A stretch of 64,000 bases of DNA, from NCBI GenBank assembly GCA_003762715.1, contig RIBJ01000037.1, positions 1 through 64,000 on the forward strand. Direction: 5' to 3'. The notes beneath the pieces are model-generated. The model worked only from the letters and a program-made list of their open reading frames with translations, searched no databases and had not been told where the DNA came from. A program made the position numbers and the translations under genes. This stretch comes from Muribaculaceae bacterium Isolate-104 (HZI) (GTDB lineage: Bacteria > Bacteroidota > Bacteroidia > Bacteroidales > Muribaculaceae). This document shows, one piece after another, positions 2,173-32,604 of the stretch; within the stretch, counting starts at the first letter, position 1; every line of letters begins with the position of its first letter.

Positions 2173-2182
2173 CCGGTGCTTA

Positions 2183-2344
2183 GAGTATGTTTACTTTTAA
2201 CTTTATGAAATCTTTAGATGCCTTTCAGACCTGTTTGAAGATTTCGTTCAGTCATTATGGAACCCCATAACACCTTCTCTCAATCTCCAAACATACTCTG
2301 AAATCCGCTATAAATCTTAACATAAGCCAAAAATAAACATACTC
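2183..2344 (+). mobile_element. 162-bp MITE-like element, copy 1
   Basis: The element starts GAGTATGTTTACTTTT and ends in the reverse complement of nearly the same sequence (AAAATAAACATACTC), giving terminal inverted repeats of about 16 bases with one mismatch. TTA stands on both sides (2180-2182 and 2345-2347), which reads as a three-base target duplication. A second copy of exactly the same length lies in the opposite orientation at 31933-32094, with about seven differences. The element has no coding capacity. It occupies most of the space in front of the outer-membrane gene at 2386, and no promoter for that gene is apparent within it. Confidence 0.8.
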
Positions 2345-2385
2345 TTAAAGATACAAATAAACATAACCCAAAAAAGACTCATCAC

Positions 2386-31582: not shown

Positions 31583-31655
<73 letters not shown>

Positions 31656-31709
31656 GAGTTGGGCCAGCCTTTGACGCTGATGACAATTGTATTTTAAAAG
31701 AACTCTTGG

Positions 31710-31782
<73 letters not shown>

Positions 31783-31846: not shown

Positions 31847-31932
31847 CGTTTTTGCAATTATTTTTTTCGTTTGGCGGGAATGAGTTATATATCAGCGTTT
31901 TAAATTTCAAAAAAAATATCCGGTTCTATTTA

Positions 31933-32094
31933 GAGTATGTTTACTTTTGGCTTATGTTTAGATTTAGAGTGGATTTCAGAGTATGTTTGGAGATTGAGAG
32001 AAGGTGTTATGGGGTTCCATAATGACTGAACGAAATCTTCAAACAGACCTGAAAGACATCTAAAGATTTCATAAAGTTAAAAGTAAACATACTC
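31933..32094 (-). mobile_element. 162-bp MITE-like element, copy 2 (at the tpx stop codon)
   Basis: This copy is the same length as copy 1 at 2183-2344, inverted relative to it and about 96% identical. It has terminal inverted repeats GAGTATGTTTACTTTT with no mismatch over 16 bases, and TTA on both sides (31930-31932 and 32095-32097). The right TTA is the TAA stop codon of tpx read on the minus strand. A further internal AGAGTATGTTT lies at 31978-31988. It has no coding capacity. Confidence 0.82.
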
Positions 32095-32604
32095 TTATAT
32101 TTCGCCTTTCAGCACTGCCAGGGCGGTTTTGTAGTCAGGCTCATCGGTAATCTGACCCACAAGCTCACGGTACACAACCTTGCGGTCTTTGTCAATAATT
32201 ATCACCGCGCGAGCCAAAAGTCCGGCAAGCGGACCGTCCACTATCTGAACCCCGTACTTCTGAGAGAACGCCGGCGAGCGAAATGCCGATGCCATTGTAA
32301 CACCCTCTATGCCGTTTGCTGTACAGAACCTCTTCATGGCAAATGGCAAATCCATGCTCACGCACACAACTGCGGTGTCGCTGAGCGAAGCAGCCTCGGT
32401 GTTGAAGCGGCGCACCGACATGGCGCACACATCGGTGTCAAGACTCGGGAATATATTAAGAACAATCTTTTTGCCGGGAAATGAATCGAGTGTGACAGTG
32501 TTCAAATCCACCCCTGCAAGCTGAAAGCCGGGCGCTGCCTCCCCTACCGACGGCAAAAAGCCGTAAACCTGCATGGGTGCATCCTTGAAATAAATTGTTT
32601 CCAT
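32095..32604 (-). CDS. tpx: Thiol peroxidase
   Basis: The 169-residue atypical two-cysteine peroxiredoxin reduces peroxides. The peroxidatic Cys60 is in FPSLDTDVCAMSVRRFN and the resolving Cys94 in MKRFCTANG, the spacing of E. coli Tpx (61 and 95). The fold is complete and lacks a signal peptide, so it is cytoplasmic or weakly periplasmic as in other Tpx. It follows the exported protein at 32630 after 25 bases in the same direction and may share its transcript. The MITE copy has landed exactly at its stop codon without altering the protein. Confidence 0.93.
   Translation of the reverse strand: METIYFKDAPMQVYGFLPSVGEAAPGFQLAGVDLNTVTLDSFPGKKIVLNIFPSLDTDVCAMSVRRFNTEAASLSDTAVVCVSMDLPFAMKRFCTANGIEGVTMASAFRSPAFSQKYGVQIVDGPLAGLLARAVIIIDKDRKVVYRELVGQITDEPDYKTALAVLKGEI

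What the first reader, a model, noticed from the sequence alone, without database searches (positions are those of the whole stretch)
2183..2344. Pair of 162-bp MITE-like elements in inverted orientation 29.6 kb apart
2183-2344 and 31933-32094 have the same length, opposite orientation and only about seven differences. Both have terminal inverted repeats starting GAGTATGTTT and both are flanked by TTA on each side. Identical size plus direct TTA flanks argue for transposition and not for a chance regulatory repeat. They contain no ORF, so a transposase must act in trans.
Basis: seen in the sequence. Interest (0 to 1): 0.7.

Follow-up and report, generated by a model that had tools for sequence, protein, structure and literature searches.

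The report
Jumping repeats sharing a conserved hairpin
The two 162-bp repeats are real miniature transposons moved by an IS5-type transposase, and inside them sits a previously uncatalogued folded hairpin that the same bacterial family keeps in several otherwise unrelated mobile elements, which suggests that the folded strand itself does a job.

Summary
Confirmed: 2183-2344 and 31933-32094 are inverted 162-bp copies (96% identical), each flanked by TTA. The genome holds six full copies and two internally deleted ones; relatives hold more at other places. Of 86 complete elements of this kind, 60 have identical TTA/TTA or TAA/TAA flanks. One relative has the orthologous site empty. Insertion sequences with the same ends (GAGTATGTTTACTTTT, 890 bp) encode an IS5-family transposase in another genus; this assembly has none.

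The unexpected part: the interior is a ~100-nt hairpin with conserved loops (AGGAG...GACYGA) shared by at least eight MITE families with different ends. It also lies just inside one or both ends of one IS5 clade. Across 29 dissimilar versions, 30 of 33 base pairs show changes on both sides. Within-helix mismatches are G.T rather than A.C (36:3) and A.G rather than T.C (38:1), so one strand is selected as a fold, probably as RNA. It is absent from Rfam and nearly restricted to Muribaculaceae (up to 55 copies per genome). Its function is not shown; I favour a read-through RNA structure that shields the insertion. New variant of a known kind.

The parts
2183..2344 (-). MITE copy 1 (family A), 162 bp; hairpin strand is the minus strand
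2180..2182 (.). TTA target-site duplication, left
2345..2347 (.). TTA target-site duplication, right
2183..2198 (+). terminal inverted repeat GAGTATGTTTACTTTT
2329..2344 (-). terminal inverted repeat GAGTATGTTTATTTTT
2216..2311 (-). conserved hairpin module (model R1, 78.5 bits)
   Evidence: covariation
2247..2276 (-). hairpin apex GAAGGTGTTATGGGGTTCCATAATGACTGAA, shared with MITE families that have other ends
31933..32094 (+). MITE copy 2 (family A), 162 bp; hairpin strand is the plus strand
31930..31932 (.). TTA target-site duplication, left
32095..32097 (.). TTA target-site duplication, right; also the stop codon of the adjacent minus-strand gene
31966..32061 (+). conserved hairpin module (model R1, 86.8 bits)
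32000..32030 (+). hairpin apex GAAGGTGTTATGGGGTTCCATAATGACTGAA
32095..32604 (-). flanking gene, a Tpx-like peroxiredoxin by my reading of the ORF (name not tested); orthologous to G010, where the site is empty

Best explanation
The pair are copies of a non-autonomous IS5-family transposon (MITE). Its ~16-24-bp ends are recognised in trans by an IS5-type DDE transposase that inserts at TTA/TAA and duplicates 3 bp. Between the ends lies a modular hairpin of about 100 nt. It resembles, and is probably homologous to, the subterminal hairpins of one IS5 clade and is also carried by MITEs whose ends match other IS5 clades. The hairpin is maintained as a single-stranded fold of one strand, most likely RNA, with two conserved tandem G.A internal loops. 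My favoured role: in the hairpin-bearing ISs both hairpins face inward, so each forms only in transcripts that enter from a flanking host gene; the fold then shields the element from read-through and makes the insertion tolerable. Shown: copies, ends, target duplication, one empty site, matching ISs, conserved strand-specific fold, shuffling between families. Inferred: actual transposition, that the fold is RNA, and the shielding role (about 0.35 on its own).
For: Copies and flanks. Empty site. ISs with the same ends: L161 and L166 for family A, L162 for B, L176 for F, L159 near H. Transposases match NCBIfam NF033580 (IS5 family) at 9.5e-54 and 4.4e-52, and Pfam DUF4096 + DDE_Tnp_1. One apex in MITE families with different ends. 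Inward hairpins near IS ends. Covariation: 29 sequences, 30 of 33 pairs changed on both sides, score 0.709 vs 0.224 shuffled and <=0.144 slid. Family A alone: 13 of 35 pairs changed on both sides, 0.323 vs 0.147. Strand asymmetry outside the apex: G.T 36 vs A.C 3, A.G 38 vs T.C 1. RNA fold -61.3 (z -10.7) on the hairpin strand vs -37.2 (z -5.4) on the other. Hairpin-bearing ISs form one clade (support 0.997) while MITEs with other clades' ends carry hairpins too. Chimera L115 joins two families at the apex.
Against: No transcript or protein data exist here. One-hairpin MITEs show no strand preference against the upstream gene (35 vs 37) and only a weak trend against the downstream gene (30 vs 47, p 0.07), so shielding would work for only one transcription direction. 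IS clades without the hairpin thrive: G219 has at least eight IS copies and no hairpin. The family A ISs that I found are from another genus, and L161 carries an in-frame stop. G.T and G.A pairs are also tolerated in single-stranded DNA.
Confidence: 0.8

Rival explanations
1. The hairpin works as single-stranded DNA: one strand extrudes during replication or excision and is bound by the transposase or a host factor that helps transposition.
For: Strand asymmetry fits ssDNA as well as RNA. Both hairpins of an IS lie on the 5'-ending strands. No gene-orientation bias in MITEs. MITEs that lack any gene still keep it.
Against: Related IS5 elements transpose without any hairpin, and IS5 transposases are understood to act on double-stranded ends (own knowledge).
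Confidence: 0.3
2. An ordinary MITE whose interior is only a long inverted repeat, with pairing kept by quasi-palindrome correction during replication and no selected function.
For: The whole element is an imperfect palindrome (69% self-match on the opposite strand); many MITE transcripts fold (PMC10969869).
Against: Template correction would remove mismatches on both strands equally, yet G.T and A.G persist and A.C and T.C do not. The loop letters AGGAG/GACYGA are kept while the arms diverge.
Confidence: 0.15
3. A host-serving regulatory RNA (attenuator, stabiliser or terminator) that has been domesticated at these loci.
For: All 86 elements are intergenic, often close to a stop codon.
Against: No clear orientation preference to neighbouring genes, loci not conserved between relatives, copies behave as transposons.
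Confidence: 0.08
4. A chance or regulatory repeat, not a transposon.
For: None found beyond the intergenic positions.
Against: Identical TWA flanks, empty site, copies in several genera, ISs with the same ends.
Confidence: 0.02

Closest known systems
IS5-family MITEs of Porphyromonas gingivalis (BrickBuilt, MITE239, MITEPgRS/MITE464, MITE700; PMC4596501)
   Same: Bacteroidales, intergenic, ends matching IS5-family ISs (e.g. GAGACTGTTGCA), no transposase of their own.
   Different: No shared hairpin across families was reported in the passages read; target duplications variable there, mostly TTA/TAA here.
Correia elements (CREE/NEMIS) of Neisseria (PMC2649163)
   Same: Small inverted-repeat elements with a core; they bind RNase III and are cleaved or protected.
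   Different: Here an internal hairpin separate from the ends, with compensatory changes, is shared by MITEs with different ends and by ISs.
IS5 family insertion sequences (NCBIfam NF033580; DUF4096 + DDE_Tnp_1)
   Same: Provide the matching ends and TTA/TAA flanks; one clade carries the same hairpin near its ends.
   Different: The 162-bp element has no transposase; the ISs found with its type of ends lack the hairpin.
Insertion sequences with non-coding RNAs (IS200/IS605 omega RNA, IS110 bridge RNA; own knowledge)
   Same: A conserved structured RNA lies in the non-coding part of a mobile element.
   Different: Different transposase type; no guide or target-pairing loop has been identified here; RNA nature unproven.

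Membership tests
MITE | Short, non-coding, with terminal inverted repeats | tested here: met
   162 bp, 16-bp ends with at most one mismatch, no coding ORF
MITE | Target-site duplications | tested here: met
   60 of 86 complete elements with identical TTA/TTA or TAA/TAA flanks
MITE | Multiple dispersed copies and empty orthologous sites | tested here: met
   six full copies in G000; empty site in G010 for copy 2; seven relatives lack a hairpin beside the orthologous outer-membrane gene of copy 1
MITE | Ends match an autonomous element | tested here: met
   L166 GAGTATGTTTACTTTTAA and L161 GAGTGTGTTTACTTTTAAC, about 890-bp ISs
MITE | Mobilised in trans by that transposase | not testable with these tools
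   needs a transposition assay
IS5-family derivative | Partner transposase belongs to the IS5 family | tested here: met
   NF033580 over cut-off, DUF4096 + DDE_Tnp_1; the family A ISs of G237 and G290 also pass NF033580
IS5-family derivative | Matching transposase in the same genome | tested here: not met
   no NF033580 match at E<=0.01 in G000; assembly in 80 contigs, so loss and non-assembly cannot be told apart; not a strict requirement for a MITE
Known Rfam RNA family | Match to a curated covariance model | tested here: not met
   no match at gathering score in the window except tRNAs; only sub-threshold chance hits in the element
Structured RNA | Covariation supporting pairs | tested here: met
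   apical-stem pairs partly by construction, see full report
Structured RNA | Transcribed | not testable with these tools
   no expression data

The most novel reading that the evidence does not exclude
The hairpin is a new class of structured non-coding RNA carried by DDE (IS5) transposons, and an RNA acting in cis is needed for, or strongly favours, mobilisation; this would explain why MITEs without genes, served by different IS5 transposases, all keep it.
Probability: 0.15. Interest if true: 0.88.

Novelty: new variant of a known kind. Interest (0 to 1): 0.62.

Why it matters
MITEs are usually treated as IS leftovers with ends and filler. Here the filler is the conserved part: one folded module travels between mobile elements that use different transposases, with compensatory mutations keeping the fold. 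It offers a concrete, searchable structure (model R1) for asking whether RNA or single-stranded DNA folds contribute to DDE transposition or to host tolerance of insertions in abundant gut bacteria.

Tried and rejected
Rfam at gathering and permissive thresholds: nothing. Phages and plasmids: no match to the 162-mer; IMG/VR: two contigs with the apex, one of the same length as a Paramuribaculum intestinale contig. Orientation to host genes: no clear bias, so a host 5' or 3' UTR role was dropped. Kink-turn and dif/attC site were considered and rejected by eye: the internal loops are symmetric 2x2 GA/GA. The first transposase tree was wrong because minus-strand ORFs were missed; redone. A Bacteroidales-type promoter inside the element was sought by eye without a convincing -33/-7 pair. 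Literature searches for such a hairpin in IS5 or Muribaculaceae found nothing.

Full report
Observation. The two stretches are as described: 162 bp, opposite orientation, 96% identical, each between direct TTA triplets. The end motif occurs four times in the window against 0.02 expected. In the whole genome (2.84 Mb, 80 contigs) there are six full copies and two shortened ones: about 83 bp on C22 and 58 bp on C29, both keeping the two ends and having lost the middle. Homologues of 161-163 bp occur in genomes of the same and other genera, 81-91% identical, at other places.

It is a transposon. In 86 complete one-hairpin elements collected from the loci (families A, B, C, H), 38 have TAA/TAA and 22 TTA/TTA as flanks; none lies inside an ORF of 110 aa or more. 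The exact ends of family C are uncertain by a base, which accounts for some of the unmatched flanks. For copy 2, the relative G010 has tRNA-Gly followed by the same downstream gene with the 162 bp missing and a single TTA. For copy 1, seven relatives carrying the orthologous outer-membrane gene have no hairpin in the stretch fetched around it; the left flank is not conserved, so that site is not a strict empty site.

Partner. A transposase from G017 (L145) matches NCBIfam NF033580, IS5 family, at 9.5e-54 with Pfam DUF4096 and DDE_Tnp_1. Its homologues occur in 51 of 247 family genomes. ISs with readable ends show TTA/TAA flanks, and their ends match the MITE families: L166 and L161 for family A, L162 for B (GAAACTGTTTAAATTT), L176 for F (GACCCCGTTCCC), L159 near H (GAGAGTGTTTGAATTT), L168-L170 and L183 near E. 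G000 has no such transposase at E<=0.01, so at present the copies look orphaned, or the IS was not assembled.

The hairpin. A scan of one genome per species for the apex GGNGTTATGGGGYTCCATAAYRACTGAA gave 77 loci, nearly all Muribaculaceae by title. The apex sits in the centre of elements with at least eight different ends. Six ISs of 1.0-1.3 kb carry the same architecture just inside one or both ends, read from outside inward, with different letters in the stems but the same loops: GA, two base pairs, GA, stem, loop, stem, GA, CY, GA. Twenty-nine versions with arms less than 80% alike align almost without gaps. Thirty of 33 pairs change on both sides; 87.5% of cells are paired against 60% shuffled and about 40% when slid. 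Within family A alone, with the ends left out, 13 of 35 pairs change on both sides.

Bias that I introduced. The representatives were collected with a filter that demands a fully paired apical stem (G.T allowed) and fixed loop letters. The invariance of the loop letters and the pairing of the apical stem are therefore partly built in. The outer arms were never filtered, and the tests hold there: 25 of 25 outer pairs vary on both sides; single mismatches outside the apex are G.T 36 against A.C 3 and A.G 38 against T.C 1; over the fixed alignment G.T 67 against A.C 23 in the outer helix, with 24 of 29 sequences showing more G.T. Family A, collected by its ends and not by the apex, gives G.T 22 against A.C 2. 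Under strand-neutral mutation these should be equal. Sequences are related, so the p-values are optimistic. The 25 of 25 strand-stability count is by construction, since copies were oriented by stability; in the ten lineages printed, the stabler strand was always the one with the AGGAG...GACYGA type of loops.

Spread. Model R1 finds 21 copies in G000: six of family A, six of a GAGTATGTTTGAATTT family, seven of a GAAACTGTTTAAATTTAATT family, and two in one element with two inward hairpins. Other genomes: G017 55, G237 48, G006 42, G085 42, G066 12, G290 4, G219 none. In the order, 149 genomes gave two outside the family (G631, two hairpins with other ends; G104, one weak). In the phylum, 296 genomes gave none but G000 (filters stricter, few candidates scored per genome, so weak matches may be missed).

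Shuffling. Hairpin-bearing ISs form one clade (support 0.997); ISs with the ends of families A, B and H lack the hairpin, though MITEs with those ends have it. L115 is a chimera: outer parts 89% identical to an A/H-type element (L078), middle 93% identical to an E-type end (L093), with both matches overlapping in the apex. The apex therefore served, at least once, as the junction for exchanging ends.

How it works. The mobilisation in trans by an IS5 transposase is strongly supported by anatomy but not assayed. The strand-specific fold is supported by two kinds of signal, covariation and mismatch asymmetry. Whether it acts as RNA or as single-stranded DNA, and what it does, is open. I favour RNA formed in transcripts that run into the element, with a shielding effect; the lack of gene-orientation bias and the success of hairpin-free ISs speak against a strict need for it.

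Against known systems. Closest published relatives are the IS5-type MITEs of Porphyromonas gingivalis (PMC4596501), and by behaviour the Correia elements that meet RNase III (PMC2649163, abstract only). That MITE transcripts often fold is known (PMC10969869). A hairpin module shared across MITE families with different ends and near IS ends was not found in the papers searched, which cover only open-licence papers.

Noticed in passing
G000:C11:109192-109448 (L197, L199): A ~330-bp element with two different hairpins facing inward and ends GAGGTTGTTTAAAAAC; similar pairs 165-190 bp apart are frequent in G085 and G066.
   Followed up: partly
L115 (NZ_JAIDKI010000123.1): Chimeric MITE joining two families at the hairpin apex.
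   Followed up: yes
G000:C22:18760-18842 and G000:C29:21363-21420: Internal-deletion derivatives of the MITE that keep both ends; the C29 one lies close to a second MITE of another family.
   Followed up: partly
G219: At least eight near-identical family-B type IS copies but no hairpin at all in the genome.
   Followed up: no
L164 (G183:C1), locus 1358-1453: A hairpin MITE with ends GAGATTGTCTAAATTT appears to abut an IS with the same ends.
   Followed up: no
L211, L214 (G631): Hairpins of this type in another Bacteroidales family inside elements with different ends (TGTTCTRTAAATT).
   Followed up: no
window 31583-31782: Two tRNA genes with identical Rfam scores in tandem just left of copy 2.
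   Followed up: no
L146 (G000:C3:7236-7685): A 1213-bp IS with a DDE_Tnp_1 transposase, ends GTAGATGACAAAAATT and TTA flanks in the window's own genome; a possible relative of the D-family MITE ends, not tested.
   Followed up: no
JAMPAP01 contigs (L070, L092, L104): A MAG titled Lachnoclostridium carries many of these Muribaculaceae-type elements; the title is probably wrong.
   Followed up: no
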